Position numbers and translations under genes: made by a program
Part shown: positions 2,640 through 56,984 of the stretch, one piece after another
Position numbering within the stretch: the first letter of the stretch is position 1
Layout of the letters: the number at the start of each line of letters is the position of its first letter
Notes under the pieces: model-generated
What the model was told of the DNA's origin: nothing
Databases searched by the model: none
Seen by the model: only the letters and a program-made list of their open reading frames with translations
Assembly (NCBI GenBank): GCA_963922205.1
Contig: CAWUHX010000219.1
Coordinates: 372,001 to 436,000 of the forward strand
DNA from: Romanomermis culicivorax
Lineage: Eukaryota; Nematoda; Enoplea; Mermithida; Mermithidae
DNA length: 64,000 bases
Direction of reading: 5' to 3'

Positions 2640-3186
2640 AAACTTATTTTCACTCCAAAAAAGTCCATATAATTTTCATTTCTAAAAAGTTAGCAACTTC
2701 ATTGGTCGGCAGTTCAAAAAGCAGCAGGTACGCTGCTACTTGCCAAAGGTTGTAGGTTCACAACCACCAAGCATTGGAGTTGTGTACTAAGAAATCGTAG
2801 TCTAGGGGAGCACCTTAATCTGGGTTCACCTCATGGTGTGGTGGTGTCTAGTGGTGAGGACATCAGCCCGATGCTGGTAACCCAGGTTCAACTCCTGGCT
2901 GCACCCTACTTTTTGAACTTATTTTCACTCCAAAAAATCCCATATAATTTCCATTTCTAAAAAGTTAGCAACTTCATTGGTCCGCAGTTCAAAAAGCAGC
3001 AGGTACACTGCTACTTGCCAAAGGTCGTATTTTCATGACCACCAAGCATTGGAGTTGTGTGCTAAGAAATCGTAGCCTAGGGGAGCACCTTAATCAGGGT
3101 TCACCTGGTGGTGTGGTGGTCTAGTGGTGAGGATATCAGCCCGGAATGCTGGTAGCCCAGGTTTGACTCCTGGCTGCACCCTATTT
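2640..3186 (+). repeat. tandem duplication of a tRNA-derived SINE unit (2 x about 275 bp)
   Basis: Two consecutive copies (about 2640-2915 and 2916-3186) both start with AACTTATTTTCACTCC, contain AGTTAGCAACTTCATTGG and CACCAAGCATTGGAG, and end in a tRNA-like segment (2835-2906, 3110-3180) closing with TCCTGGCTGCACC. The second tRNA-like segment can form a 7-bp acceptor stem (GGTGTGG with CTGCACC, using wobbles). The first has a collapsed anticodon loop. A Pol III-transcribed SINE that was tandemly duplicated is the simplest reading. Confidence 0.75.
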
Positions 3187-28700: not shown

Positions 28701-31700
28701 ATGAAGCTTTTGGATTGCTTTTACGTTGAGAAAGGAATAATCACTTCAAAAAGTTTGACGTATTGATCTTTCTCAAAAAATGTGTCAAGGGAAAAATGTG
28801 AATCTTCATTAAATATCAAGATGGAATATTGATGATTACCAATTAAAACATGAGATAATACGTTTAAGATGATTAAAACTATTAAAGATTAAATGATAAA
28901 TGAAGGTAGACATGTTAGAAGCAGCGCCTGAGCTAGGAAATAAATAATAATGCTGAAAATTTTGAGATTATGACCTTCTAAAATGCACCAAAATCATACA
29001 TGTAACGGAGCTCCGAGGTCTGGGGGGGGTGGTTGGAGCACTTTTTGGGGGCCGGGGGTCAGTAATTCCCAAAATTTTGGAGGGAGGGGTCCCTGAAGGA
29101 AAAAAAAATCGATTTTTTCCATGAAAAATGTCGGAAAACGGTTTAAAAAGTAGTAATTTTTGTCTAAAAAATGATAAGATTATGTACTTATGGCGCGAAG
29201 CGCCGAAAAAATTGACGTTCTTGACCATTTTTTGTTCAAAAATTGACATTTTTCATAGAAAAAATGGCATTTTTCAGTATTTTTCCGACTAAAACTATGG
29301 GGGTCCCAAGGGCTACCATATGGCTAGCCATAGGATTGGAAAATTCTGGGGGGCGGTCGCCCAATGGCTAGCCATATGGTCGACGATTTCTGGGGGGGGG
29401 GGGGGGTTCCCATAGCACTTCCCCCCCCCCCCAATTACATGTATGACCAAAATACATCTTTTCTGTATCCGATATGATCAAACACATGACTCAAAAAATT
29501 CTGACAAGCCATTCTTGCTTGTTAGACTGAAATTCTACAAGCCATTTTGTCAGTCCAACAAGCCACGGCTTGTAAAAGGCTAAAAAAAACTATGCATACA
29601 CCTACCTGGGTAACGGTTTTCATTTTGTACCCGGGTAATTCGGGTACCCGGTGTGAAGTTCTACGTATGGGCCTGTTATACTTGCACCTACCTGACTGTA
29701 GGGTAACACATTCAGCTGAAGAGATACGAAAATTCACCTTTCTGTAGTAATTCCCATTTGTTACAAATCTATGCCAATACAAAATGATACATAAGCATTT
29801 TTTGTAATATATTTATGATTTCTCTATTTTTGCTTAAAACCGGGCGTGTTCGTTCAGCCATATAGACGCATAGTTCAGTTTTTGTTTTTAATTTTGATGA
29901 CGTGCCAAAAATCTAATTGATGAAAAATCTGTCTTCTGCTGCATTTGGTTACAACTTTCATTTGTGAATCTTTTGCGGAAAAATTTTCTAGTTTCGTATT
30001 GATGAAGATGCGAGATTACTTATGAAGATATATAAGTGAAATACCGTATATTACAGCAGAGAAGAAGCCAAGACGACTTTTTCGAGTAATAAAATACTAT
30101 AAAATGCAAAAACAAAACAATTTAACACCAAAAACTATAAAATACTAACAACATTATAAAATGCCAAAAATCCATAACAGGCAAAAAACTAGCGATGCCA
30201 ACTGCTTTGCCAGTGCTAACCTAACGTGCTTTTTTTATCTGTAATTCTGTACACTTTTATACTGTTCTCAATGTTGCCTTTTTATAAATGTGCAATATTC
30301 ACTATCCTGATTTTTGCACATTAACATTTTTGAATGTGGTGCAATAATAAGTTCTGAATAATAGCTAATTCAAATCATTCTGCTGTTAACTGGAAATTTT
30401 AAACATTTTGAAGACCAACTTAAAATACAACTAAAAAAGAGTACTTGTAGGTTATACTCTCTCCGCACGCCTAAGCATAAGCCTGAGCCTAAGCATAGGT
30501 CTAAACTTAAGACTAAGCCTATGCCTAAGCCTGAGCCTAAGCCTAAGCCTAAACCTAAGCCTAAGCCTAAGCCTAATCCTACTTCTAAGCCTAAGCCTAA
30601 GACTAAGCCTATGCCTAGCCTGGGCCTAAGCCTAAGCCTAAGCCTAATCCTAATTCGTCTCAGTCCAAGCCTAAGACTAAGCCTATGCCTAAGCCTGAGC
30701 CTAAGCCTAAGCCTAAGCGTAAGCATAAGCATAAGCATAAGCATAAGCATAAGCCTAAGCCTAAGCCTAAGCCTAAGCCTAAGCCTAAGCCTAAGTCTAA
30801 GCCTAAGCCTAAGCCTAAGCCTAAGCCTAGGCCTAGAATCGAAGACAGTTCACCGATCATTAGATGGCCCAAATCTTGTGGGCATTGAAAAAATTCATGT
30901 TCGTATATAAGAAGTGATTATCATGAAAAAGATAACAAATTCCATAGCTAAATATATGATTTTCATTCAACAATAAGTGATTTGCTCTTAAAAATCTGTC
31001 ATGTTCACATTAAAATTGATCAGTTTTATAACTTATGACCTTTTTAAATACAAAAAAAATCATTTTTACAAAAGAAAGAATCAAGAAATAGAATCAAGTC
31101 AGGAATTTTCGAAAGAGGTTGGAATTCTCTGGGAGGTCAGCTAGTATTCTGCTGACAGCCAACCTAAATTCTGTCCAGAGTGCTTATTTGAGACCATGGC
31201 TGAAATGGAATAGTGGCTGAAGGGCCACAGGACCTATCGTTTTCTGTCAAACATTGCTCGATAATTTTCATGTGCCCCAGTTGCCAGTGTATCAGGCGAA
31301 AATTTACTTATTTTTGTTTGCCTGCTAGAAAAAGGTTGTTGCCTGAAAAACTCGAAATGCTAGCATATTTGTCCAAAAATTTGAATACCGAGAGAGAGTT
31401 CTTTAATAACCCTGCATTATTTGGTTATTTACTTGCATATTATGATGAAAATGAATCGATTTTAACATCATGTGGTATTTTTTGTATTGTGTATATTGTG
31501 CATATGTACGTATTGTGCATATAATATTCAAATAATAAAATAACTATTAAAAATATGCAAAAAAAAATTTTCTGACACCAAAAAATGCAATTCTGACTCA
31601 ATAAAATGAGCAAAAAAGCTATCCTAACACCATAAAATGGACAGAAAAAGTTATTCCGACTCAATAAAATGGAGAAAAAAATATATTCTGATCCCATAAA

Positions 31701-34117: not shown

Positions 34118-34584
34118 ATTCTAAAAATGAAATGGAAAATCGCAAGAATTGTCTATTCACTTTTCGACGGAAACTTTTAAAGAATAATTTTGGAACATTT
34201 TTCACCAATAAATGATAATAAATTGTCGCGTTTTTATTTTCTCATTCTTTTTCCCGCTCCGCATTTAGTATATGAATCGACTATACTGAAACGTTTCTTT
34301 AGGAAAACGCCTATTTGTGAAGAAGAAGGAACCGGTTTTTCTTTGGTCTCGAGATTATTTAGGCGCTTATGCGTTATTTTTTAAGTAAAAGTCAGACGAT
34401 AATGGCTCCAAAAATGACAGAAATGACGTCATTTTCTTCGGGTAGAATATGCCACTTCTTAAACGATTGTGCGTTGACTCAGTCGCCCCGTCATTTCAGC
34501 CGCAATACCATTTGAGCCAGCATGTCATTTAAGCTATAATGTCATTTCTGCCAGCCCTATGACCGATGAAAAAGCCGAAATACT
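34118..34584. other. presumed 5' flank of the astacin gene
   Basis: About 0.5 kb between the astacin start codon and the telomere-type repeat plus LTR. I could not single out a promoter element. Confidence 0.35.
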
Positions 34585-34610
34585 TAGGCCTGAGCCTAGG
34601 CCTAAGCCTA
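34585..34610 (-). repeat. left remnant of the telomere-type array split by the LTR element
   Basis: GGCCTGAGCCTAGGCCTAAG followed by CCTA, ending exactly at the LTR. The array resumes with CCTAAG at 48337. The 4-bp CCTA on both sides fits a target duplication. Confidence 0.8.
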
Positions 34611-35190
34611 TGTTGTATTTGTAATTTTGGCCGGGCGTTGATGAATCGTGGGCAGGATTGGGATTCCAAGGTTGCGTCCTTAATGTACGTGTTTCCCACA
34701 CCCACGTTTACCCGATAACCTAATTACTTGTACTTAAACCCCAACACTAAAATATCCCTCCAATTAAAGAAAGTCAGATTTCCTTAATTGTCTCCCTTAT
34801 TGTGCAAGATCGAAAGGCGAGAGTTTTTCTACCTTTTAATATTACGCAATAAAACACAAAACACTTACGTGCACAAAGCGAAGACGGGCGAGAAGAATAA
34901 TAACACAATAATCTACTCCCACGCACTGGGATGAAACGAGAAAAGGGAGCTGCGTGGTGGGAGGCGGCTAATAATAAACTAGTGGTGGCCAGCGGGGCGC
35001 ACAACTAGTACATATAACAAATAAAAATATAACAACAATGATGAATGAGAGAGACCAGCGCACGTGTACCAACGTGCGCTACAGTAAGACAGCTGCTAGT
35101 GGTCCGTGTTGCTCTCTCCACTTGCCACCTGCAGGCCTCATACGCGCTTTGACAATAATGACGAAAATCGCCGGAAAACACACTACAACA
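34611..35190 (-). repeat. 3' LTR
   Basis: 580 bp with TGTTGTA / TACAACA ends. Partner of 47757-48336, with about 96% identity by eye. Confidence 0.95.
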
Positions 35191-35203
35191 CCCCTCCCCC
35201 CTT
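35191..35203 (-). promoter_or_regulatory. polypurine tract
   Basis: Minus strand AAGGGGGGAGGGG directly abuts the 3' LTR, as expected for the plus-strand primer of LTR elements. Confidence 0.85.
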
Positions 35204-35764
35204 GCAGTAGATCGCCTTAAGCGATCGTCAAGAAATAACGAAAAAAAACATGCAAGGGGAAGGGAACCGCCACTACAGGCTGACACCGGGGTTGCTGATT
35301 GTTCTTCGGTATCACACAGTGGGGCCGGTGGAGTTGTTGGGGTTGTTTGAGCCGATTTTGGAGGCGGCGCATAGGGTGAGACCTCCCGACGCGAGTGCAA
35401 TTAGGGGGGACGTAGGTTCAGCGATGCTGCAGCTTGCGTGGTCACTCCGTCCGTACCGATATACTGGAGCACACCAGCATACAATGCCATACGGATGGGA
35501 GGGTGAGGTCGGCCACTATGAGGGCTGCGACAACAGTGGAATCCGGCGGCAGAGGCAAGGACAAAGAATGGTGCAAGTGGGGGCATGTGGCCGGCCACAG
35601 GCGGTCACCTTACTGTGTGGTCTTAGCATCGGCTGCACGTGTGCTGGAAGTACTAGTACACAAAAATAAAGCACGAAAGAGATTAGAAAATAAACAACCG
35701 GAATAAGGCGAGGTTAATAAAACAAAATACAAAGGAAACAAAATTACTCTACAAAAGCTTCCTT
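35204..35764 (-). other. retrotransposon 3' untranslated region
   Basis: Between the end of the third frame and the PPT. GATCGC and GCGATC (35210-35226) form a short inverted repeat. Plus-strand frames here, for example at 35250-35669, have no recognisable features. Confidence 0.5.
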
Positions 35765-38700
35765 TTAATGGCGGCGTCGTTGGCGAGTATCGGAGGCAGA
35801 TCGGTAGTTTCGATGAGAATCCCAGCAATCACACTCGTTTTGTGGGTATCGGTTGTTATGGTAGCCATGTGGATCGCGAGGGTCATCGTGGCCATCAAAA
35901 CGAATGTTATGGGAGCCACGGTTTCGACCGTAATCGGTGTTATCGCGGCGGCGTGAGAACGAGATATGCGTTTGCGATTGAAGCGGGGACAGCGGATTTA
36001 CGCCTCGAGGGGGCAATTGTGTGGCGATCAATGACGGACGATGGGAAGGCAGCCCTGTTGGTGGCAATGGTCACGGTGGCAACAGATTTCACCGGACAGA
36101 GAAATCGTGCCGACGCAACAGGGGTGCGGGGCGATCTGTTTCGCTATGGTACTGCAAATAAATTCGCTGAATGTCGGCAATTTCCGGCGGTTGGGGAAAC
36201 AGGGCATAGCGCAGATAAGCCATCCAGCTGTGGATCAAACGGACAGCGGTGTTATAGGCTTGCAGCAAACACGAGGGGTTATCCAAACAGCGGACAGCCT
36301 CGACGACGCCGAGCTCCTCAGCCCACAGGCCAGCGACCCATCGTAATATCAGTGCGGCCACGTCATGCGAGACGGGCGGTTGTTGTTCTCGATACGCCGG
36401 GCAGTAGTGTTCTGGAAAGTATTAATACAAAGCGAGCGAGGCGTTCGTTGCATAGATATGCACGGCCATGGTGATGCGAATACCAAGGCGGCCGAAAAAG
36501 TTGATCAAAACCATTTCGTGCAATGTACGTGGCATGAAAAATTCAATGGCCGGGTCGACACGTGGCGGATAGCGGGGCGTCACTAGCGTAACACAATGCC
36601 ACGAATCGGTGGTTTGGAAATGTGTGTAGTTAGGCAATCGAGTAACTTCGCTAGGCAACCATGGCTCGATAGTTGGCGTGGAACTTGGTGGCGGAGGGAC
36701 TCCGAGGACCAGCCGAGTTGCGATAGCCAATTGCGGTTGGGCCTGCGCGGTACTCTGAACCAATGTCGGGGCCGTAGGCGGCAGCGACCCGGTGTGAGTA
36801 ACCGTAGTTGTCATAGCGGATGTCGGTGCCGTGGGAGGCTGTGACGTTACCGCAGGCGGAATCGAAGTTGCGGTGGACGTGGCGGGTTCCACGTCCATAG
36901 GCGGCGGCATAAGCGGAGCCTTGAACACGTCTTTCGGCGGGTTCTTCAAGGCTTCCAGACGTCGTGTAATTTCAGCATGTCGATGCAATGGACTAATATA
37001 ATCCGTCAACTTTGGTGGTGATCGGCGAAAACCGCGGCGATATGCATCTTCGTAGAAACCAGTCGTGTGCACCTGGGGTGTTTGCTGGCTTTGAGTACAG
37101 TGCGGCGGTATATCATCATGGTGTTCTTGGTGACGGCTATCGCGGCTGGTTGTTTGACTTTGCTGAGTTTCTCTACGGTGGGGATCATCATGAGAGTGAG
37201 ACTCGTGGCATGAGCAGTGACTGTCTGCGTGGCGAGCAAGCGGCAGTTGCGTTGCCGGTGCTGCTGTTTTGGTTGTCCTAATTTTAGGTTTTGGCATTGA
37301 AGTGGCCTGAAAAGGTTTGTAGGCTTCTTCCTGGGCTTTCTGCTTATCACGTTGTTCCCAGCGATGGGTTAGGCGTTCGCTAGGCGTTTGGCCGGGCTCA
37401 GCATGCGAAGTACTGGGTGGCGGTGTACGCCTTGCGCTAGGTTCGTCCGTTGTTCGCGTTTTGTGGGATTTTCGGTATGCGGATTCTTCCTGAAGGTGTT
37501 GTTTGCGCTTCATGGAATGTTCGTAACAGCCAGGTTTTCGAATAGGTTTTCCATGGCGATCTAGAGCCGGCGCGGACGTGCTGGGGGCCTGTGGGGTTTG
37601 AACATCCACAGGTGCCGTTGGCGGCACTAGAGTCGTGGTGGGGGGCGGTTGCGGTGCCGGTGGCGGTTGTGAAACGATCGGCGGTGGTAAAGGGACTTGC
37701 GGTTTCATGGCAGTTTGAATCATAACAGGAGCCGTTTGAGCGACTTGCGGAACGGGGTCAACCAACGTCGTTTGGGGCAACAATATGTGTTGTATCTCTT
37801 CTTTCAGCGCTGCGGGGTAGTCTTGCCAATGGTGCTCAGGGAACAACATCCGGGGCAGCAGCGGCGGAAAATGATACGCGGTGAGCGCTGCGACCAAAGC
37901 GTCGTATTGAGTAGCTGAAATGAATTGTTGCGAAAAACGTACAGGAACACTATACCTGGCAGCGGCAACGGTGGCTATTATCGGAGGGCCAGGCAAAACT
38001 GCCGGTGTCGCCAAAAAAATTCGCGGATCCACAGCGGGTGCCGTTGGAGGTATGGTAGCAGCAGGTTCTATGGGGGCAACGTCCATAGACGTGGATTGAT
38101 CTACGGTGCTTTCTTCGGGAATATCTGTCAACATTTGATCCGAGGTCATGGTTTCGGAGTCTATTGCGGTCAGTTGGATGGGGGGAGATTCGTCCATCGG
38201 TGTCGGGGCAATCTTGGAGATTTCGTTGAGCGTGAGTTTCAAGAAATCAGAGATCTGCATAGCAGTTGCCATAACGTCAGATGGCGCGGCGGGCATAGGA
38301 AGGGCTGACGCGTCGGTTGATGGCGGCAGCTTCGCTATGTTGAGGTCGAAAATTGGTGTATCTAACAGCTCTTCATCGGCAGGTTCAACTTCAACCTCAA
38401 TGGGGCGCTCGAGCAGTTCCTCGGCAGTGAGCGTGTGCGCCCAAGCCGTAGTCGGCATGGGGTACGTGTACACAGGGGCAGGGAAGGAAAATCGATTTTG
38501 AAAGTCAATGATTGCCATAAACGATGAATAAACATGGAAACGGCTGTGCGGATTGGTGGTGTAGTCGGATTCGTTGATTTCAATTTCTTCAACGGTCGTT
38601 TCCATATGGAATTCCTCCTTGAATATGATCGGTCGTAGCCCGAACCGATTGCAGACATACGTGCCGGGATCACTGGCGAAAGACGGTTCGTGTTCGGGGA

Positions 38701-40326
38701 TGCGATTCATCCAATTGGTAAGGCGCGATTTTGGATTGCCGTTGTTGCAGTACCACATACATTCGTTGAACGCGGCGCGTATTTCAGGTGTCATCGGTTG
38801 AGCGTGGCCAAGCAGCAAATCCTTGACAAAGACGTATTCTTCCCCTGAGCACGGCGATGCTAAGAGCGCGGCCAACGGCATAAAAGAGGTTAGCCGTGGG
38901 AACCAATCTCTGTCCACCTGTAAAAAATTAAGAATGGTGGAGGAGTGATAACAATAATGAGTACCGTAATAGGTGCGCTCACGCAAGGGCTGATCAGGGG
39001 CAATGCGTTCGATCCAGACATCGTCAACCTCCTGACGAAGCGGCGGTAACGCGGGGTCATCGTATTGCATTCGATCCCGAATTGCCAATTTGTAGATCGG
39101 GGAAACCGGAAAGTTGAGCAGTTCGATAATCCTATCCGTTAGGTTACTCTTCATGGCTGAGGTAACAGCTGCTTGAAGGTGCTTGGGGTCGTCAAAGATT
39201 GATCTGAGAGCCGGGTCCTCGTCGTCGGAAACGTCCGGCGATTTATTCCACTCGTCCTTTCGTTTCTTCTTCTTTTTCTTTGGTGCTTTCGGGGCGGTGA
39301 GCAGTTTTGGATGGGTTGTACGCGTCAACACTTTGATGTCGCGAAAACCCTTGGTTACCGTCCCTAAACAAAAAGACCGACCATGGTCGGACGCTGTGCA
39401 ATCGAACATAAAAAATTTATAAGCTGAGAGAACTTCATCTCGCATAATGGCGGGTAAGGCAATTTGCAATATCGTGGGGTATACTCGATCGGCGTAGTCG
39501 GGGGTAAAACATCCGACAACGGGACCTTGTGAAAAGCGGTAATAACGGATTCGGTAAGGTGGTCAACTTCGGCGGCGTCCAGCGAGTCGTGGGGAAACAA
39601 CGCAGGGGCGTTGTAAACCTCATGGATGAAACCATAGTGACCAAAAGCCAAAAACAACAATAGCGGGCAGTACGCGTCAAGGGCCGCATAGGCAGGGACG
39701 TCGGATTGCAAGAACGACGTCGTCGGATTGTTGAAGAAACGCAGGGCTGCTGGGAAGCGTAGCCTGAGCTTGGAAACGTCGAGCGCCCACATGGCGGAAA
39801 CGGTTGCTTTTAATGTACGTTTTTCGGGGAAAAAACCAATTGGTCGCACCAGCTCGTATAACCGTGGGGATATGTCGATGTTTAGGATAACGCGGTATGC
39901 GTCGAAATGGATGGCTTTTACGACGGCGTCTTTTTTTTTCTTTTGTCGATCGGTTCGGAATGGGGTACCTAGAAGGGCGTATATTCCGGCCCAGTCGTCG
40001 GCTCCATCAAAGGAAACTACGATGGTGTGTTCACCATCAACTAGGGAGAATAGTGCGGTCCTGTCTTCCCGGGTTGCCGTGAACGTTTTGAAAAGGAACA
40101 TCATGCCATTCGGGAACGCAAGTTGAACGTACCGCGGGTAGCTAGACGCCGTAGGATCGGCTGGCATGGAAACGGTGAACTGGAAATTTTTCATATCGGC
40201 GGCCATGATCGATTCTGTGTCGAAACCGATGAGCGTATAGCCAGGGAAGTTTGGTGTGGGTTGGGCGGCCAAGGCCGGCGAAGCTTAAATCGTTTTGGTG
40301 GGGCTGCTGCTCGGCCCAACGTACAT
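35765..40326 (-). pseudogene. retrotransposon ORF3: DEDDy 3'-5' exonuclease-like domain plus long Pro-rich and basic region
   Basis: The frame starts at ATG 40326 and reads, with interruptions, to TAA at 35765 (about 1,520 codons). N-terminal motifs are those of a DnaQ-like DEDDy exonuclease: GFDTES (Asp and Glu of motif I, 40213-40221), FDGADDW (motif II, about 39990-40010) and YAALDAYC (motif III, Tyr-x3-Asp, about 39670-39690), with spacing normal for WRN/mut-7-type domains. After it come a Lys-rich patch, a Cys/Tyr-rich region, long Pro/Thr/Ala stretches, a His-rich segment, and a C-terminus rich in Arg, Asp and His. Interruptions: TAA at about 40285, a one-base slip at the G-run 39500-39504, TAA at 36422, and TGA at 36089 and about 36074. 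Frames on both sides of each join smoothly. It occupies the place of env, but I see no signal peptide or membrane anchor. The exonuclease role is inferred from motifs. Confidence 0.75.
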
Positions 40327-40330
40327 ATCA

Positions 40331-40408
40331 TTAGTTGACGTTAATTGTTTCATGATACGGTGGGGGCTCGTCGGCCGTGGCAGTGGATCTGGTTGACGGA
40401 GTTGTCAT
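40331..40408 (-). CDS. possible 25-codon upstream frame with PPPY motif
   Basis: ATG at 40408, reading MTTPSTRSTATADEPPPYHE and a few more residues to TAA at 40331, four bases before the ORF3 ATG. PPxY is a known late-domain/WW-binding motif in retroviral Gag. Whether this one is translated is unknown. Confidence 0.3.
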   Translation of the reverse strand: MTTPSTRSTATADEPPPYHETINVN

Positions 40409-40920
40409 GTTGAAAAATAATTTTTGAAGAGTGGCTGGAAAATGCAACTATTGCGGATGGAAGCGAAAAGTATAAATGAAATAGTAAAAGAATAAGCCGC
40501 TGAAAGGTGAAGAAAGTGCAAAGTAAGAAGATGTAACACTACAGTTAGGAAAAGCAACACTAACATTACTATGTTATTGGGGACTAAAATCAACCTTTCC
40601 CAATTAATCCTATGAGAGTGATAGTGGCCAGGGTCGGGCGGTAATAAACCGAATGGCCTCGCGCTAAACAGAACCTAACATTAAAGAAGAAACCCCCTCC
40701 TATAGCAAAAGTGTGGGGACCGGGGCAAAGTGTAATGTGACGGTGTAAAAGCGATCGAGTTTGGGGTATTGGACGGTGCGGAAAAGATTGTTTGGAGCGG
40801 TATGATCTGCATCGCTGTCTTGTCAACAAGGTCGCCATTATCTAAATTAAACAAAGGTAAAGGTTATTTACAACTCGGCGTGATAAGCGCAGTATCACAA
40901 AAGAAAAATTTCAACGCAAA
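40409..40920 (-). other. retrotransposon spacer between integrase and ORF3
   Basis: About 0.5 kb without a supported frame. A splice acceptor or internal promoter for ORF3 would be expected here but I cannot point to one. Confidence 0.4.
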
Positions 40921-42210
40921 CTATTGTCGGTGTGAGGTGTTGGGCATACACGGTCCACCTTCTTCGTGTTCAAACGCGTCTTTTGCGGGTTGCGGACTGA
41001 AGGGTTTTAAACGCATTATGGAGATGGTTTGCGGGCAGCCGGCTGCATCAAGTGAGTCGATGGTTACAACGTTTTCGGTTGCACGGGAAGTGTCCGAGAT
41101 CAGAAAAGGTCCAATGTCGGGTTGGATTTTGTTGGCCTTGCGTGTATTGGTTAAAAGAACAAGGTTGTTGACGGCGAAGTCACATTTTGGGGCTTTGCAG
41201 TCGAAATATTCCTTGCTGACAGCAGGGGCTGTATCGAGGTTAGCTTTAATCGTTTCGTGCATCTTGAGTTGCGCTTGCGTAAGAATATGTTGATAAGCGT
41301 CCTAGTTCAATGGCAATGTGAGTCCGTGGGCGCAATCATAGTCGAAGTTGATGCGCGGTTCATATCCTCCTAATAAACTGAAGGGCCAATGGCATGTAAC
41401 TGTATGTGGCGTGGCGTTATAGGCGAACACAGCATATGGCAAGTAGCACTCCCAGTTGTCTGGATTGTTGGCGGTATATTTTTTCAATTGGGCGATCAAT
41501 GTTTGATTGAAACATTCGACCATTCCATTGCACTGGGGATGATATGCCGTCGTTTTAACCTTGTGGATTTTGAGAAGTTAGCAAATATCTTGCATAAGTT
41601 TTGACCTAAAGCATCCACCTTGAGGACGAGTGGGCTACCCTGCGTGAGGACGACGTTGTTGATGAAGCATTCCACAATTGTCGAGGCTTTTTGGTCCGGT
41701 ATCGGGTGTGCAGACACAAATTTCGTGAAGTAATCCTGAAAAACAATAACGTATGGGCGTTTCTCACCTACCGGGGAAATATTGACAATGTCGGTTGCCA
41801 CGATTTCAAAAGGATGTGTTGGTTGAATTGGTAACAGCGGTGGGGGCGGTGACGTTCGCGGCGTCGTTAGCTGACAAATTTTGCAAGTTTTGATCCAGTC
41901 TCGGACGTTTTCTTCCATACGGGGCCACCAGAAATGAGCTTTAATCGCTGCTAGGGTGTGGTGTGATCCTTGGTGATTCAAAATTTTCGCGCCGTGGAAT
42001 TGATGAAGTGTTTGGTCGACCATGGATGTGGGTACGACCAATTGCTTGACATGTTTAAGTTGGCGATACAAAAGTTGGTCTTTGACGAAGAAAATCGGTG
42101 GATGTTTGGCGGCATTGTCCGTTCTGAGGGTGGCGATGATTTTTGCAATGGCTGGATCCACGGCTTGGGCTTTTAAGACTTCTTTGTGAGTGGCGATCGT
42201 TATGGCCTCG
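40921..42210 (-). pseudogene. retrotransposon integrase, frameshifted
   Basis: N-terminal HHCC zinc finger ([13 protein letters not shown] ... CKICQ, about 41870-41995), catalytic core with VATDIV (first Asp, about 41790) and KVDALGQNL (second Asp), then after a frameshift near 41540 [17 protein letters not shown], which holds the catalytic Glu. A stop TAG at about 41302 precedes the C-terminal domain (FAVNNLVLL, IGPFLISD). A further frameshift near 42205 separates it from RNase H. It would insert cDNA into the genome if intact. Confidence 0.88.
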
Positions 42211-42994
42211 GCCGGGGCGGTTCATGGTTGGTGGTTACTGGCATTAAATTCGAGAGTGTGGGTTGACTGATGGTCTTTTTTGTCATTGCACGAGTGACGG
42301 CGTTGATTTCGGCGTTGACTTCCGTGGGCAGTGAGGCTGCTGCTGGGAGTATCTCCAGTACTGTTAAGGCGGTGGCCGTAGTTGCACCAGCAGGTAGGAA
42401 ATTCTCACGGAAAATCTTTGCAGTTAAATTTTCGGTGTTCGGAATCGGCCTTTTGTCGGGGTCATCCTTTCTGGACAAAAAATCGGCACAAGCGTTGTCT
42501 TTACCTTTGACGTACTCAACCTTGTAATCGTAATCTTGAAGGCTGATCGCGAAATGTTGGAGGCGCAAGTTTCGGTGCTTTTCATCTTTGAGCCATTCAA
42601 GGGGTTTGTGATCAGTGCGGACAATAACTTTTTGGCCATACACATAGTGGTGGTACATCCGGAAGCCATTGACAATGGCGAGGCATTCACGCTCAGTTGT
42701 ACTGTAGTGGGTTTCGGCATCGGTGAGTACGCGGCTATTGTAGGCGATGACCCATTGATCATTTCCGTTTTCTTGATACAAAATCGCTCCAATGGCGGTC
42801 ATACTGGCGTCGGTTTGAATTAGGAACTGAGCTTTACCATCGTAAACCGGGTAGCGGAGAAAAGGCGATGAGGTGAGGGCTTTCTTGATGCCTTCAAACG
42901 TGGCGTGATGTTCCTCCGTGGTGATATATTGAGCGTCTTTCCGTAGGAGTCCGTATAAAGGACTGGACAAGGTTGCCAAATTCGGGATGAATCA
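42200..42994 (-). pseudogene. retrotransposon RNase H domain
   Basis: Contains [29 protein letters not shown] and [11 protein letters not shown], the RNase H core acidic motifs of Ty3/Gypsy Pol. It is in the same frame as RT, separated from it by TGA at 42992-42994 (QWCK stop FIPNL). Confidence 0.9.
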
Positions 42995-44254
42995 TTTGCA
43001 CCATTGGACTAGACCTAAAAAACTTTGCATACCTTTTTTGGTTTTTGGAAATTCATAGTTGGCGATGGCTTTGACTTTCTCCGGATGGGCTGCAATTCCG
43101 CGGGCACTAAGAAGGTGTCCCAAAAACTTGACTTGCAGCGGCAGGAATTCACATTTGTCGGGCCGAAGCGTAAGGTTGGCCACGCGGAGGGCGTCGAAAA
43201 CGATTTGTAAATGTTCCAAATGTTCTTCAAACGAGTTCGAAAATATGATAATATCGTCGATGTAAAGGAGGCAAATCTTCCAAATATACGGGTGGAGAAT
43301 TCTTTCCATTAGGCGTTGGAATTCCGCGGGCGCGTTCTTCAAACCAAATGGCAAAACTTTGAATCGAAACAAACCTTCTTGGCAGATGAAGGTTGTTTTG
43401 TCGCGGGAATCCGCATCGAGGGGTACCTGCCTGTACCCTGCTTTGAGATCAAGCGTGGTGAAGAATTTCGCTTGTCCCATCGCGTCCAAATAATCCTCAA
43501 TGCGCGGGATCGGGAATTTGTTGTTGGGTGTGACCTCCTTTATTCCAGGGTAGTCCACAACGGGTCTCTATGAGCCATCTTTTTTCTTTACTAGGAACAG
43601 CGGTGCGGCCCAGGGCAAGCGGGATGGTTCAATAAAATTGTTGTCAAGCATTTCTTGAATATGGCGGCGTACGATCCATCTTTGCTCCATCGCGGCGTGG
43701 TAATAATGGCGGGATACAGGCTTTGCGGTGCCGGTGTCAATGCTGACGGTTAATTGGCTAGTGATAGTTGGTTTATCACCAGGGAGGCTGAAAACATCAT
43801 GGTTTTGTCGAAGCATACTGAGGGCCTTTCCTTTTTGAGTGGCAGGAACGTAAGTTTTTTCAGTCATTTTGTTCAGGGCGAACTCTAACCTTTGTTGCAC
43901 GGTGTGAAAAGGGAACGATTTATCGAGTGCCGCAGGCTCGTGGTCTGTCAAATCGCGGTCGGCGGCAGCGGTTGCTATCTGGCAGTTGGCATAGGTTTCG
44001 GAGTACTCTAGCATGTGTTTTGTTATCGCGATTAGCTGATTTGGTCGAAGTTTGATACTTTTTGGCGTATTATTGATGAAGAGTAGTGGGCAGTGACCAT
44101 TGGTGATGTTGACAACTGCGGTTTCAACTGGGAGTTCTGTGGCTACCCTGTTAGTGGCTAGGGGTCGGAATAGTCGCCGATGTGGTGGGGAACACGGTAC
44201 TTCTGACCCATTGTTGGCAATGGGGTGAAACCGAAATGGAAGCTTGGGCGACAA
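42992..44254 (-). pseudogene. retrotransposon reverse transcriptase
   Basis: RT fingers and palm are recognisable: [14 protein letters not shown], then TAG at 43568-43570, then RPVVDYPGIKEV, FFTTLDLKAGYRQV, FGLKNAPAEFQRLM, LLYIDDIIIFS (catalytic YIDD, about 43250) and LGHLLSARGI. The stop replaces what is normally Trp after DGS. An upstream frameshift near 44160-44250 joins it to the protease frame. Family placement (Ty3/Gypsy) rests on the domain order and these motifs. Confidence 0.92.
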
Positions 44255-44960
44255 GGAAAATTGATTCGGCGAGCTCGGTAACCTCCAGCCGCCGGGGGGG
44301 GCGATTGGTGTGGACTAGGTTGAGCCTGCCGTATCGGTTGTTCAGCTTCGATTTCTTCAGGCTGGCTGAAAATATCAGATTTATCATCAGGGAAACTCAC
44401 TCGCTCGTCCTCGGGGATTTCCTCCAAGACATTGTCATTGGTGGCGTTTAGGAACAACTCCGTTTGAGAGCGGGCCGAGGCGATTACTTTTAGCGGCAGT
44501 TTTACATCTTGTATTTCTATGTAGTTATCTTTGAAATTCAACACGGCGTGGATGTCTGGGTGTGCGAGAAAGTCGGTGCCCATGATACATTGGTCGTTTT
44601 CATCGTCGTCGAGAATTATGCATTTGATCATGTGCTCTCCGAACGGGGATTCCATTGTAAGGACTACTCGGACGTGGGGGTTGACAACGGCGCCATCGGC
44701 TACTTTAATTTTTCCACAGATTGGGAGTTGGAGCGATTGCTTGTCGAAAGCATGTTTGACTAATCCTGAGGACAAAACGGAGCATTGGGCACCGGTGTCA
44801 ATGAGTGCGTGTGCCTTAACGGCTCCTATCTTGATTGGAATTTGGAAGGCTCTTGTGGAGGCGTATTTGCGGACAAAGGATTTTGAGGATGGCGTGAGGT
44901 TATCAATTTGACAGATGGACGAACAAATATGGCACGGGTTTTGAAAAGCGTCCTGTTGCT
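44158..44960 (-). pseudogene. retrotransposon aspartic protease
   Basis: ALIDTGAQCSVL holds the retropepsin DTGA active site (44789-44800). IMGTDFLAHPDI is the ILG-type flap partner region. Upstream the frame reads through NPCHICSSICQIDNL. It is +1 relative to the gag frame, so a programmed shift or a mutation lies around 44900-45000. The downstream Pro/Gln-rich linker ends at TGA/TAG near 44158. Confidence 0.85.
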
Positions 44961-45688
44961 TTCCAACAGACTATGCCGGGGCTGACAATTGGTGCGGTGG
45001 AAGTGATTTCTTTAGACAGGATGACCATATTGGCAGCTGAAGTCGATTGATTAGTAGCGCGTGTTTCGAGAGCGGACGTTGGCGCGGCATTCAATGGGGG
45101 TAGCGCGGGTAGGGCTAGTTGTAGCTCTGAGGATTGAGAACTGGCGCACGAGGAATCTGTCGGTGTTGTGATGTATGAAGCGGGTACAGCGTTGTAGTGA
45201 ATATGTTGTTCCCATGGCGCCGGGAATTGATGGTTCGGATAAACAGCGTAGGTATTCTGAACAAAATCATTTGGGCGCTGTATAGAATTACCTTCATAAA
45301 AATGGTTTCGCGCGCTGCGGGCGTAGGTTGTGCCTCGTTGGGGCGGTCCTCCGGGGCGGGGTCTCCAATCGTGCTGGCCGCGAATATCGTTCCAGTTGGT
45401 TCGAAAATCGGTTTGCCGTGAGTGGGCCGCGTAGGTTGGGTGGTTCGGTTCTTGTCGAATTAGCTGTTGAGCATTTTGCCGTTTGAGCCAGACGCAATCT
45501 TCAGTGTTGTGGGTGCGGGATTTGTGAGCGTCGCACCAAAGACCTGTAGGCTCGGTCGTGCACGTGCGGTCTTGGCTGGCGGATCGATCGAAACGATTTG
45601 CATATGATTCTCGGTTTTGGGATTGGTGGCGTGGACTTTGTTGTCGGTTGAGGGGTAACGTTTCCTCGGGACGTTGGGGTGATTTTCA
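44903..45688 (-). pseudogene. gag nucleocapsid-like segment behind an in-frame TGA
   Basis: The gag frame continues after TGA at 45686-45688 without another stop to 44903. It encodes a zinc-knuckle-like WCDAHKSRTHNTEDC and a Tyr/Asn/Pro-rich tail. A single C-to-T change (CGA to TGA) would explain the stop; readthrough is the alternative. Confidence 0.7.
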
Positions 45689-47620
45689 TTCTTTGTAGTC
45701 GTGATCGTATCTCTGAATCAATTGCTCTAAAAGCATCTCCGTACGCGGTGGCTGTGGTGGAGGTGGTTCTATCGCTTGCAATTGGAAAGAGACAAATTTA
45801 GCGGGTGGTGGTGCCGAATTTTGGAGTCTGCCGTCCGTAGAAAGAGAGCAGTCGCGGTAGCAGTTTTGAGGGCGGTCCATACTGTGGTGGCGTTCAAAAC
45901 GGCAGTCACAAGGCTGCGGGGACTTCAGGGGTTGTGCTTCCAAATTGGCTTGGTTCACGAGAATAGGTCGTTCCGCGGTACCAATTTCTGCTTTGGTTGC
46001 GTTGAGGACACTACGGGCTTTAGCTACGGCATTGGCCATTTGTTGGACATTCGTGAAGTCTTTTGCTTGTTCGCCAATTGTTAATTGATAGAAAACAGGC
46101 ATTCTTGTCAAAAAGGTGTCAATTACTTGTTTGTGCGGAAAGGTTTGATCTTCATTCTGATACAGTAATTGTACATAAGTCATTACCTTGCTCAAGAACG
46201 CCGTGGGTTCCTCTCCAACTTCTGGGGTGATTGACGCGAGTTCACATTTGAGGGTCATCTGATTACAATCCGGAGCCAGTTGGAACATGAGCAAATTATT
46301 GGCGTCTTCGTACCGGGTCATATCTTGGATCATATCGCTCGGCGTGTCGCGGGTGAGTCGGCGTAGTGCGCTCATCTTTACATGGTTGGAGGCGTCATAG
46401 CCAAACTCGTTTTCCAGGCGGATGAAGAAGCGTAGCAGACATTTGTTTGTCGCGGCGCCGTCGATAACCAATGGGTGCATGTTGTCAACAATTGTTTTGA
46501 TTGGGCTATCTTCTTCACGGTGAGATGTGCACGGCATGTCGTACCGCGGCTGCGGGTGGTTGTAATAATCGTCCAGTGGGTAGTCTGAGAAGCCAAAATG
46601 GTTTGCCGCGGGCGGTTGGCATCTTTGAAGCGCAGAACGGTGTAATTCTTTGTCTCCGCATGCGGTGCAGGAAAATTTGTTATTGTACAGGGTGTCCGTT
46701 GACGGGGCTTTAGGTTTGACCTGATTTGGTAGTCGGCCGAAGACTTGAGCCGGTTCAGTTTCATGGAGAGTTTCGTTTGGGATATAGATGTCTCTCGTGT
46801 CCTTGCCGTGAAACCGTGTGGACACCGGCGGCAGTCTTGGTGTGGGCGGATTGCGCGCATTAGTTGCGGCGGCAGTTGTAGAAATCAACTGTTGCATTTG
46901 CTCGGCGAGTGCGGCAAAGCTCGCATTTGTGGCTTTGGTTTGTTCTTGGATTTCGCGTTGAATGCGTAGTTGCTGGGCTTGAAATTGATCGGAAATGGCG
47001 CCCATGATTTGATCAATTGTTTGTACCATAGGAACATTGTTGGTGATGTGCACAGCGGCGGTGCTGAGTTGATCCAACGCGTCTTGTGCTTCAATTCGAA
47101 AATTTTGAACTTCATTTGCATTTGCGATGGCTTTGCTGCTGCGGTGATTGCTTGTTGAGTTGCGGGTGGTGGCTGGGGCCTGCGGTGGATCGATATTGAC
47201 AAAGGATTCGGAGGAATCGGTTCTGGCGATGGTTTGATCATTGCTATTTTTGGCTGCGGTGCTTGGCGGCGGTGCTTGTGGTACAGCCGGCGCATTAGGG
47301 CAAGTTACGGCGGCGATGAGAGGATTTTGATTTAGCGATTGCAGAGGTTGTGGATCGATTATGGCTGTGGTTGGGGGAATGAACAGTACTTGCGGTTGTG
47401 CTGTCCCGTCCCGCGCAGGAGTACTGAAAGTAGCTAAGGGCGGATTATGGGGCCGGAGGCTTACGGTGGGTACCGCTGTTGATTGCACAATATTTGATGG
47501 TCGCGGCAGTAACATTTGGTCAAAACTCAGGGCGCGGCGGGCGGCTGTGGCGGCATTCGGGGAACTAGATCGCGACCGAAGGCCTGTGAGATCCAGCGGT
47601 GTATGGCTTACTTTTGGCAT
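45686..47620 (-). CDS. retrotransposon Gag polyprotein
   Basis: 644 codons from ATG at 47620 ([13 protein letters not shown]). A reading frame is open further upstream but has no ATG. The N-terminal half is Pro/Thr/Ala-rich with a Cys patch ([10 protein letters not shown]). The C-terminal half ([33 protein letters not shown]) looks like a Ty3-type capsid. It forms the virus-like particle that packages element RNA. It ends at TGA 45686, beyond which the nucleocapsid-like part follows in the same frame. Confidence 0.8.
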
Positions 47621-47737
47621 CTTTTTTCGTATGGTATAATAATTTTTTTTGTAACCTTGAGCGCAGCTGCGGCGGGGTCGAATTTTGGAATCTTTGGGCT
47701 TTTCGGATGCAACCCAACGGCGGGGAAAGAAAGTGTA

Positions 47738-47755
47738 CAATCCAAGCGGTCACCA
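47738..47755 (-). promoter_or_regulatory. primer-binding site
   Basis: One base inside the 5' LTR, the minus strand reads TGGTGACCGCTTGGATTG. It begins with TGG, complementary to a tRNA CCA end. I could not identify which tRNA. Confidence 0.8.
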
Positions 47756-47756
47756 G

Positions 47757-48336
47757 TGTTGTATTTGTAATTTTGGCCGGGCGTTGATGAATCATGGGCA
47801 GGATTGGGATTCTGAGGTTGCGTCCTTAATGTACGTGTTTCCCACACCCATGTTTACCCGATAACCTAATTACTTGTACTTAAACCCCAACACTAAAATA
47901 TCCCTCCAATTAAAGAAAGTCTGATTTCCTTAATTGTCTCCCTTATTGCGCAAGATCGTAAGGCGAGAGTTTTTCTACCTTTTAAGATTACGCAATAAAA
48001 CACAAAACACTTACGTGCACAAGGTGAAGACGGGCGAGAAAAATAATAACACAATAATCTACTCCCACGCACTGGGATGAAATGAGAAAAGGGAGCTGGG
48101 TGGTGGGAGGCGGCTAATAATATACTAGTGGTGGCCAGCGGGGCGCACAACTAGTACATATAACGAATAAAAATATAACAACAATGATGAATGAGAGAGA
48201 CCAGCGCATGCGTACCGATGTGGGCTACAGTAAGACAGCTGCTAGTGGTCCGCGTTGCTCTCTCCACTCGCCACCTGCGGGCCTCATACGCGCTTTGACA
48301 ATAATGACGAAAATCGGGGGAAAACACACTACAACA
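47757..48336 (-). repeat. 5' LTR
   Basis: 580 bp, TGTTGTA / TACAACA ends, same length as 34611-35190. It would hold the element promoter. The minus strand has an AT-rich TTATATTTTTATTCG run as a possible TATA region. Confidence 0.95.
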
Positions 48337-48524
48337 CCTAAGCCTAAGCCTAAGCCTAAGCCTAAGCCTAAGCCTAAGCCTAAGCCTAAGCCTAAGCCTA
48401 TGCCTAAGCTTAAGCCTAAGCCTAAGCCTAAGCCTAAGCCTAAGCCAAAGCCTAAGCCTAAACTACAGCCTATCCTGAGCCTAAGTTTGCCCAAGCCTAA
48501 GGCTCAGGCTAAGCCTAAAGAGTC
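48337..48524 (-). repeat. right part of the split telomere-type array
   Basis: About 190 bp of CCTAAG units starting exactly at the LTR edge; continues the remnant at 34585-34610. Confidence 0.92.
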
Positions 48525-56623: not shown

Positions 56624-56696
56624 GCTCGGTTGGCTCAGTTGGTTAGAGCGTGCGGACGGTAGCCGCAAGGTCCTGGGTTCAAGTCCCAAACCGAGC
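56624..56696 (+). tRNA. tRNA-like head of SINE-A unit 1 (GGT loop)
   Basis: 73 nt, acceptor GCTCGGT / ACCGAGC fully paired, D-arm with TGGCTCAGTTGG (A box), anticodon stem TGCGG / CCGCA with loop ACGGTAG (GGT at 34-36), and T-arm GGTTCAAGTCC (B box) with one stem mismatch. Position 33 is C, not the near-universal T. Since it heads a repeated unit, a SINE promoter is more likely than a working tRNA-Thr gene. Confidence 0.55.
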
Positions 56697-56854
56697 CTAA
56701 CTTTTATTGAAGCCCTGAGTGGCGGGAAGAGGTTGCCTCCACACTGGTGGCCCTTGATGGTCCGTCAAACTCGACGGCGGAGGGATGTTGAGAGTGGTCA
56801 CAGCAACCACCTCAACTACAAATTGTTGCAAAAAAAGAGAGCACCTTTCCCGTT

Positions 56855-56927
56855 GCTCGGTTGGCTCAGTTGGTTAGAGCGTGCGGACGGTAGCCGCATG
56901 GTCCTGGGTTCAAGTCCCAGACCGAGC
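56855..56927 (+). tRNA. tRNA-like head of SINE-A unit 2 (GGT loop)
   Basis: Same as unit 1 with a perfectly paired T stem (CTGGG / CCCAG). C at position 33 again. Structure complete; functional status uncertain. Confidence 0.55.
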
Positions 56928-56984
56928 CTAACTTTTACTGAAGCCCTGAGTAGCAGGAAAAGATTGCCTCAACATTCCAAAAAA

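What the first reader, a model, noticed from the sequence alone, without database searches (positions are those of the whole stretch)
35765..40326. A Ty3/Gypsy element that carries a DEDDy 3'-5' exonuclease in the env position
Seen: after integrase, on the same strand, a frame of about 1,520 codons (interrupted by mutations) with GFDTES, FDGADDW and YAALDAYC in the right order and spacing for a DEDDy exonuclease, then a long Pro-rich and basic region. Known: this fold occurs in WRN, mut-7 and DNA-polymerase proofreading domains. Extra ORFs in LTR elements are usually env-like; a proofreading-type nuclease there would be unusual. Inference: it may trim cDNA ends, counter host small-RNA pathways, or edit reverse-transcription products.
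Basis: partly seen in the sequence, partly recalled or inferred. Interest (0 to 1): 0.88.

Follow-up and report, generated by a model that had tools for sequence, protein, structure and literature searches.

The report
Nematode retrotransposon carrying an exonuclease gene
A mosquito-parasitic nematode carries retrovirus-like jumping genes whose third gene, where an envelope gene would sit, appears to code for a conserved nucleic-acid-trimming enzyme; a similar arrangement was known in rotifers, but here it is abundant and looks kept by selection.

Summary
Window 34611-48336 (minus strand) is a Ty3/Gypsy LTR element (LTRs 95.7% identical). Between integrase and 3' LTR lies a decayed third ORF whose N-terminal ~240 residues look like a DEDDy 3'-5' exonuclease. 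Direct profile searches with this family find no DEDD nuclease over threshold; the assignment rests on motifs in register, a bridging family C (23% identical; Pfam PF01612 E=0.0066, below cut-off) and profile-profile comparison with RNase D above all 60 shuffles. Of 129 scored copies, 45 lie in frames of at least 1,600 residues. A family C element with 99.7% identical LTRs has the same layout; a third family (B) has a clear PF01612 ORF behind an integrase-like frame. Open copies show dN/dS 0.06-0.11 on the exonuclease; four of five catalytic residues are invariant in 30 A and 8 C loci, though decayed gene models lose them. Bdelloid rotifer LTR elements already carry DEDDy ORF3s (PMC5408684), so the kind is known; nematode host, very long ORF3 and selection evidence are new as far as my searches reach. 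Function is inferred: a 3'-end nuclease acting in trans, possibly against RdRP/Dicer silencing.

The parts
34607..34610 (.). candidate target-site duplication CCTA (left)
   Evidence: CCTA directly outside both LTR ends; it lies in a CCTAAG repeat, so it could also be repeat register
34611..35190 (-). 3' LTR, TGTTGTA...TACAACA
   Evidence: blastn pair of 582 bp, 95.7% identity, with 47757-48338; the last 2 bp (CC) lie outside the TG...CA ends
35191..35203 (-). polypurine tract AAGGGGGGAGGGG next to the 3' LTR
   Evidence: read from sequence
36422..39562 (-). ORF3 continuation: long Pro-rich tail in another frame (further decayed frames go on to about 35765)
   Evidence: (5 long relatives)
39364..40284 (-). 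ORF3, stop-to-stop frame with the exonuclease domain
   Evidence: 72 relatives; 120 relatives; 129 scored genome copies
39517..40248 (-). DEDDy-type exonuclease domain; proposed catalytic D22 (40221-40219), E24 (40215-40213), D97 (39996-39994), Y199 (39690-39688), D203 (39678-39676), numbered from 40284
   Evidence: alignment with families A and C and with RNase D
40406..40408 (-). possible ORF3 start codon; the frame is broken, and sequence is missing, between here and 40284 in this copy
   Evidence: sequence; N-terminus resembles gene models P0008 and P0018; integrase-to-domain distance 676 nt here against about 1,200-1,240 nt in most loci
40921..41301 (-). integrase C-terminal region
   Evidence: found upstream of the exonuclease in 29 of 30 loci, the window's own included
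41496..42221 (-). integrase zinc-binding domain and core
   Evidence: Pfam PF17921 5.6e-18, PF00665 2.8e-8
42200..42991 (-). RNase H
   Evidence: Pfam PF17917 4e-34
42992..43567 (-). reverse transcriptase
   Evidence: Pfam PF00078 6.3e-34
44158..44970 (-). aspartic protease
   Evidence: Pfam PF13650 1.9e-8
44903..47749 (-). gag-like frames
   Evidence: position; 45686-47749 resembles the family C gag region (1.3e-26); no Pfam match
47742..47755 (-). primer-binding site TGGTGACCGCTTGG, one base after the 5' LTR
   Evidence: read from sequence; the tRNA was not identified
47757..48336 (-). 5' LTR
48337..48340 (.). candidate target-site duplication CCTA (right)

Best explanation
The element is one decayed copy of a large Ty3/Gypsy retrotransposon family of the mermithid nematode Romanomermis culicivorax. 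Its third ORF, between integrase and 3' LTR, codes for a protein with an RNase D-like DEDDy 3'-5' exonuclease domain followed by a long, less constrained, Pro-rich tail. Shown: anatomy, many open copies, same layout in a related complete element, signs of purifying selection on the domain, retention of the catalytic residues in the best-scoring copies. Inferred: the protein is an active two-metal 3'-5' exonuclease, made separately from Gag-Pol and acting in trans. Most likely role (about 0.35): it trims or destroys RNA 3' ends to the element's benefit, the likeliest target being host RdRP/Dicer silencing RNAs and their templates; end-processing of the element's own RNA, primer or cDNA is nearly as likely (about 0.3). 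The confidence given is for the identity and an active enzyme, not for the role.
For: LTR element with PR, RT, RNase H, IN. 129 genome copies scored of 3,471 first-look candidates; 45 of 129 lie in frames of 1,600 residues or more (two of these with a stop inside the match), 55 in frames of 1,500 or more. Integrase C-terminus upstream in 29 of 30 loci. Family C: gag, PR, RT, RH, IN by similarity to the window's parts, then ORF3, LTRs 602 bp 99.67% identical with CTGT outside both ends; RT 65% identical to the window's; ORF3 domain homologous (phmmer 5.2e-16 for the window frame, 1.2e-27 and 4e-29 for an open copy, in a database of two sequences), PF01612 at 0.0066 (16.7 bits, cut-off 23.6). 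hhalign A+C profile against RNase D: probability 78%, score 41.9, above 60 of 60 shuffles and the reversed profile. dN/dS of the exonuclease 0.109 (22 stop-free of 30 loci) and 0.057 (13 loci), against 0.128 for part of the tail in the same 13; and 0.064 against 0.184 for the integrase C-terminus in another set of 13 loci. D22, E24, D97, Y199 in 30 of 30 A and 8 of 8 C loci; D203 in 25 of 30 and 8 of 8. Basal nematodes are reported to silence transposons with RdRP/Dicer small RNAs and DNA methylation, shown in Trichinella, with the methylation machinery present in R. culicivorax (PMC4323106, passages).
Against: The window's family gives no Pfam or PDB match to DEDD nucleases over threshold; weak DUF4350 matches in 8 of 10 copies. 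Family C alone (two sequences) gives no signal against RNase D above shuffles (19.5 against 19.4). No usable structure. The loci compared are the best-scoring ones; among gene models the residues are kept less often: D22 21 of 27, E24 23 of 28, D97 40 of 53, Y199 43 of 43, D203 40 of 44 (gaps left out). dN/dS in family C is higher (0.236, 7 loci, few changes). No activity, expression or small-RNA data.
Confidence: 0.8

Rival explanations
1. RNA/cDNA end processing: the exonuclease is a replication helper that trims 3' ends of element RNA, the tRNA primer or cDNA before integration.
For: RNase D-like profile similarity; exonuclease more constrained than the integrase C-terminus (0.064 against 0.184); the rotifer authors suggest 3'-end processing (PMC5408684, passages).
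Against: It is a separate downstream ORF, not part of Pol, so delivery to the particle is not explained; most Ty3/Gypsy elements do without it (established knowledge).
Confidence: 0.3
2. Reverse-transcription proofreading: the domain edits cDNA during synthesis.
For: DEDDy domains proofread in DNA polymerase I (established knowledge).
Against: Not fused to RT; the comparison profile was RNase D-type, with two of 16 sequences from polymerase-type exonucleases, so closeness to polymerase proofreading domains was not tested apart; fidelity was not tested.
Confidence: 0.08
3. The DEDD fold is kept as a non-catalytic RNA-binding or structural scaffold in a particle or envelope-like protein.
For: Catalytically inactive DEDD derivatives such as Maelstrom and EXD1 exist (PMC5408684, passages); a long tail is attached; hydropathy is borderline, not clearly free of membrane segments.
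Against: D, E, D, Y invariant in 30 A and 8 C loci at 23% domain identity.
Confidence: 0.1
4. Motif mimicry: the three motifs occur by chance in an unrelated protein.
For: No direct Pfam or PDB hit over threshold for the family itself.
Against: Homology to family C, which touches PF01612; profile-profile score above all shuffles; motifs align in order and register.
Confidence: 0.04

Closest known systems
DEDDy ORF3 of bdelloid rotifer LTR retrotransposons (Juno, Vesta) and Athena elements, PMC5408684
   Same: RNase D-like DEDDy exonuclease as ORF3 downstream of pol in LTR elements; acquired at least twice there
   Different: Rotifer, not nematode; the motif is noted there as DEED, here DEDD; ORF3 here lies in frames of about 1,400 (family C) to 1,670 (family A) residues; here many open copies and signs of purifying selection on the domain (their neutrality test was on env-like and GDSL ORFs). 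Common descent of the two was not tested.
Pfam PF01612 / RNase D
   Same: ExoI DxE, hairpin, ExoII D and ExoIII YxxxD align in register; family B passes the curated cut-off
   Different: Window family too divergent for a Pfam match; a long tail follows the domain
Yeast Ty3 (Ty3-G Gag-Pol, PDB 7q5b, 4ol8)
   Same: PR-RT-RH-IN order; best PDB matches of the family C RT-RH stretch (1e-82, 4e-81)
   Different: Ty3 has no third ORF (established knowledge)
env-bearing Metaviridae (gypsy/errantivirus type)
   Same: third ORF between IN and 3' LTR
   Different: no Pfam env match; hydropathy borderline

Membership tests
Ty3/Gypsy LTR retrotransposon | LTR pair with TG...CA ends, PBS, PPT, short target-site duplication | tested here: met
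   family C copy. Both insertions lie in repeats, so the duplications are candidates
Ty3/Gypsy LTR retrotransposon | pol order PR-RT-RH-IN | tested here: met
   family C by similarity and PDB match
Ty3/Gypsy LTR retrotransposon | RT placement in a named clade | not tested
   only best PDB match to Ty3; no tree made
DEDDy exonuclease (PF01612-like) | Asp-Glu in ExoI, Asp in ExoII, Tyr-Asp in ExoIII, right order | tested here: met
DEDDy exonuclease (PF01612-like) | match to the family profile over its cut-off | tested here: not met
   window family none or 0.092; family C 16.7 bits against 23.6; family B met, 41.7 bits
DEDDy exonuclease (PF01612-like) | profile-profile similarity above controls | tested here: met
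   A+C and A; C alone against RNase D not
DEDDy exonuclease (PF01612-like) | RNase H-like fold of the domain | tested here: inconclusive
   models with pLDDT 45 and 52, not searched
DEDDy exonuclease (PF01612-like) | metal-dependent 3'-5' exonuclease activity | not testable with these tools
   needs a bench assay
rotifer-type DEDDy ORF3 elements | DEDDy ORF downstream of pol, before the 3' LTR | tested here: met
   window and family C
rotifer-type DEDDy ORF3 elements | common descent with Juno/Vesta ORF3 | not tested
   rotifer sequences were not in hand; none came up or 37
env-bearing element | fusion glycoprotein with membrane segment | tested here: inconclusive
   no Pfam env hit; best 19-residue hydropathy means 1.63-1.79 are borderline and were taken on a decayed A copy, 1,265 of 1,396 residues of C and one B ORF

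The most novel reading that the evidence does not exclude
The ORF3 exonuclease is a transposon-encoded silencing suppressor that degrades RdRP products, siRNAs or their templates in an animal lineage that controls transposons by Dicer/RdRP small RNAs and DNA methylation, which would explain why several Gypsy-type lineages of this genome carry such an ORF and are so abundant.
Probability: 0.22. Interest if true: 0.85.

Novelty: new variant of a known kind. Interest (0 to 1): 0.58.

Why it matters
It suggests that a nuclease in the env position is not a rotifer oddity: in a nematode it occurs in two related Gypsy families with full layout and behind an integrase-like frame in a third repeated family, in many open copies, and the nuclease domain is more constrained than the two other parts compared (its tail and the integrase C-terminus). 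That makes the function of such accessory enzymes testable in an animal lineage whose transposon silencing differs from the piRNA standard.

Tried and rejected
Direct searches: Pfam, NCBIfam and PDB with the window sequence and family alignments gave no DEDD match over threshold. IMG/VR scan: 115 pattern stretches, 0 relatives. Protein searches listed only R. culicivorax (72, 5 and 120 proteins; a few names are cut off in print), so there is no outside relative for dating the capture. First hhalign against enterobacterial RNase D alone failed (probability 0.8%, both profiles narrow); broadened with ten plasmid-borne relatives out of 40 listed rows it worked. Family A or C against family B alone is not significant (probability 4.6% and 2.7%), so descent of B from A/C is not claimed; LTRs of family B were not looked for. 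AlphaFold models rejected for low confidence; no fold search was run. One search used the wrong (C-terminal) part of RNase D by mistake and was set aside. PMC3985635 (passages) added nothing on this point. The test from the integrase side (do copies with this integrase lack the ORF?) could not be run. Counts of CpG changes against one copy are meaningless for three shifted loci (over 500 mismatches) and are not used.

Selections to know: the 30 A, 30 B and 8 C loci are the best-scoring copies the tool returned, not random; the A set holds the window's own copy and two that look like duplicates of each other (L094, L095). One search used 22 stop-free of 30 (the window's degraded copy among them); one search used 13 of 30 (A) and 15 of 30 (B); one search used 7 of 8 C loci (one with a stop left out) and 13 A loci chosen, not the same set as. 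One search kept 20 of 30 B loci because two motif strings were required, and used 82 rows for family A, 61 of them pieces of 128 proteins. Open-frame counts were typed from the table.
Full report
What is there. The window is G000:C219:372001-436000 of a 359,112,060-base, 595-contig genome; these numbers equal those of the Romanomermis culicivorax v2 assembly (359.1 Mb, 595 scaffolds; PMC10879605, passages), and the protein relatives listed are from that species. On the minus strand, 34611-48336 is an LTR element of 13,726 bp: LTRs 95.7% identical with TGTTGTA/TACAACA ends, CCTA on both outer flanks (inside a CCTAAG repeat), a PBS one base after the 5' LTR and a polypurine tract before the 3' LTR. 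[quoted passage not shown] This copy is broken: gag-pol and ORF3 run through several frames.

The third ORF. Downstream of integrase a frame (39364-40284) carries FDTES, FDGADDW and YAALDAY, and continues in another frame (36422-39562) as a Pro-rich tail. The genome search scored 129 copies of the exonuclease frame out of 3,471 candidates; 45 of 129 lie in frames of at least 1,600 residues, two of these with a stop inside the match. In 29 of 30 loci looked at (the window's own included) the integrase C-terminus lies upstream, mostly about 1,200-1,240 nt from the domain; the window copy has 676 nt, so it seems to have lost sequence there.

Is it a DEDDy exonuclease? The family itself is too divergent for direct searches: no Pfam, NCBIfam or PDB match to a DEDD nuclease over threshold, one of 25 members at E=0.092 to PF01612, and weak DUF4350 matches instead in eight of ten copies. 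Searching the genome with PF01612 (116 matches at E up to 1) uncovered two bridges. Family C is a full Gypsy element: one frame resembling the window's gag, PR, RT and RH, the next its IN (L155), then a 1,396-residue ORF3 frame (L152). Its RT is 65% identical to the window's; its LTRs are 99.67% identical over 602 bp with CTGT outside both ends, within a tandem repeat. Its ORF3 domain is homologous to the window's (5.2e-16) at 61 of 265 identical residues and touches PF01612 at E=0.0066, below the curated cut-off. Family B is a 608-residue ORF that passes PF01612 clearly (1.4e-10, 41.7 bits) and follows a frame with a CCHC knuckle, RNase H and a sub-threshold integrase zinc-binding match (24.4 bits, cut-off 25.5) plus an integrase-like motif (recalled); its LTRs were not looked for. 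A profile of A plus C matches an RNase D profile (16 sequences, two of them annotated as exonuclease/DNA polymerase) with probability 78% and score 41.9; 60 column shuffles reached at most 26.3 and the reversed profile 13.9. Family A alone scores 33.2 against a shuffle maximum of 24.2; family C alone (two sequences) 19.5 against 19.4, i.e. no signal on its own. With family B added to the RNase D profile the scores are 47.1 (A+C), 36.8 (A) and 29.7 (C) against shuffle maxima of 18.9, 19.4 and 20.9. The D, E, D and Y residues are kept in 30 of 30 A and 8 of 8 C loci, the last D in 25 of 30 and 8 of 8. AlphaFold gave no usable model.

Selection. NG86 dN/dS over the exonuclease is 0.109 for 22 stop-free of 30 loci (231 pairs) and 0.057 for 13 loci with long open frames, against 0.128 for the part of the tail at hand; in another set of 13 loci the integrase C-terminus has 0.184 and the exonuclease 0.064. 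Family B (15 of 30 loci): 0.084 for the exonuclease, 0.250 for its tail. Family C (7 of 8): 0.236 with few changes. Since stop-free copies were chosen and the copies share history, these are indications, but the excess of silent change (pS 0.34 against pN 0.05) is hard to get without selection for protein function. Against: among gene models, many of them decayed, catalytic residues are lost more often, mostly Asp to Asn (D22 kept in 21 of 27, E24 in 23 of 28, D97 in 40 of 53, Y199 in 43 of 43, D203 in 40 of 44).

How it most likely works. Shown: element, ORF3, domain by comparison, conservation. Inferred: an active 3'-5' exonuclease made separately from Gag-Pol. The RNase D-like character points to RNA 3' ends. 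Two roles are close: attacking the host's small-RNA silencing (about 0.35) and processing ends of the element's own RNA, primer or cDNA (about 0.3). Basal nematodes are reported to make anti-transposon small RNAs with RdRP and Dicer and to methylate transposon DNA, with data mainly from Trichinella; R. culicivorax has the methylation machinery and the highest methylation reported among nematodes (PMC4323106 and PMC8821070, passages). Proofreading is possible but unlikely, as the domain is not tied to RT.

Known or new. Bdelloid rotifer LTR elements carry DEDDy ORF3s, acquired at least twice, and share them with Athena elements (PMC5408684, passages); later papers mention the exonuclease as an accessory domain or ORF3 of LTR elements (PMC6338049, PMC5718144, passages). 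Eight answered word searches listed no paper whose title or shown start of abstract reports such an ORF in a nematode; only open-licence papers are held, and of the nematode-related papers listed I read passages of three. So: a new variant of a known kind, with a new host phylum, a very long ORF3, several families in one genome and signs of selection.

Noticed in passing
L154:1317-6845 (family B): The frame upstream of the 608-residue exonuclease ORF holds a CCHC knuckle, an RNase H match and a sub-threshold integrase zinc-binding match but no RT match: this copy may be a non-autonomous element that still keeps an open exonuclease ORF.
   Followed up: partly
window 40284 region; gene models P0020, P0031, P0040, P0056, P0061, P0065: Six public gene models join pieces of pol straight to exonuclease residue 1-5, as if a shared splice acceptor lay there; it may be a predictor's artefact or a spliced ORF3 message.
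   Followed up: partly
window 34581-34610 and 48337-48490: The element sits inside CCTAAG repeats, i.e. (TTAGGC)n, the nematode telomere-type repeat (name recalled).
   Followed up: no
codons of D96 and D97 (window 39999-39994): These Asp codons lie in CpG context; in gene models D becomes N in 12 of 52 and 11 of 53. Most stop-free copies have CpG O/E of 1.3-1.6, but two stop-free (1.09, 1.11) and two stop-bearing ones (0.97, 0.98) are lower; it would fit methylation-driven decay.
   Followed up: partly
G000:C158:182213, 187991, 193769: Three PF01612 fragments exactly 5,778 bp apart, which looks like a tandem array holding an exonuclease piece.
   Followed up: no
window 3110-3181, 56624-56697, 56855-56928: A tRNA-Ser and two tRNA-Thr genes; none ends in the sequence complementary to the PBS.
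   Followed up: partly
window 30421-30890 and 32911-33605: Degenerate hexamer-type repeat arrays in opposite orientation, and a 31-bp-period array at 31567-32506.
   Followed up: no
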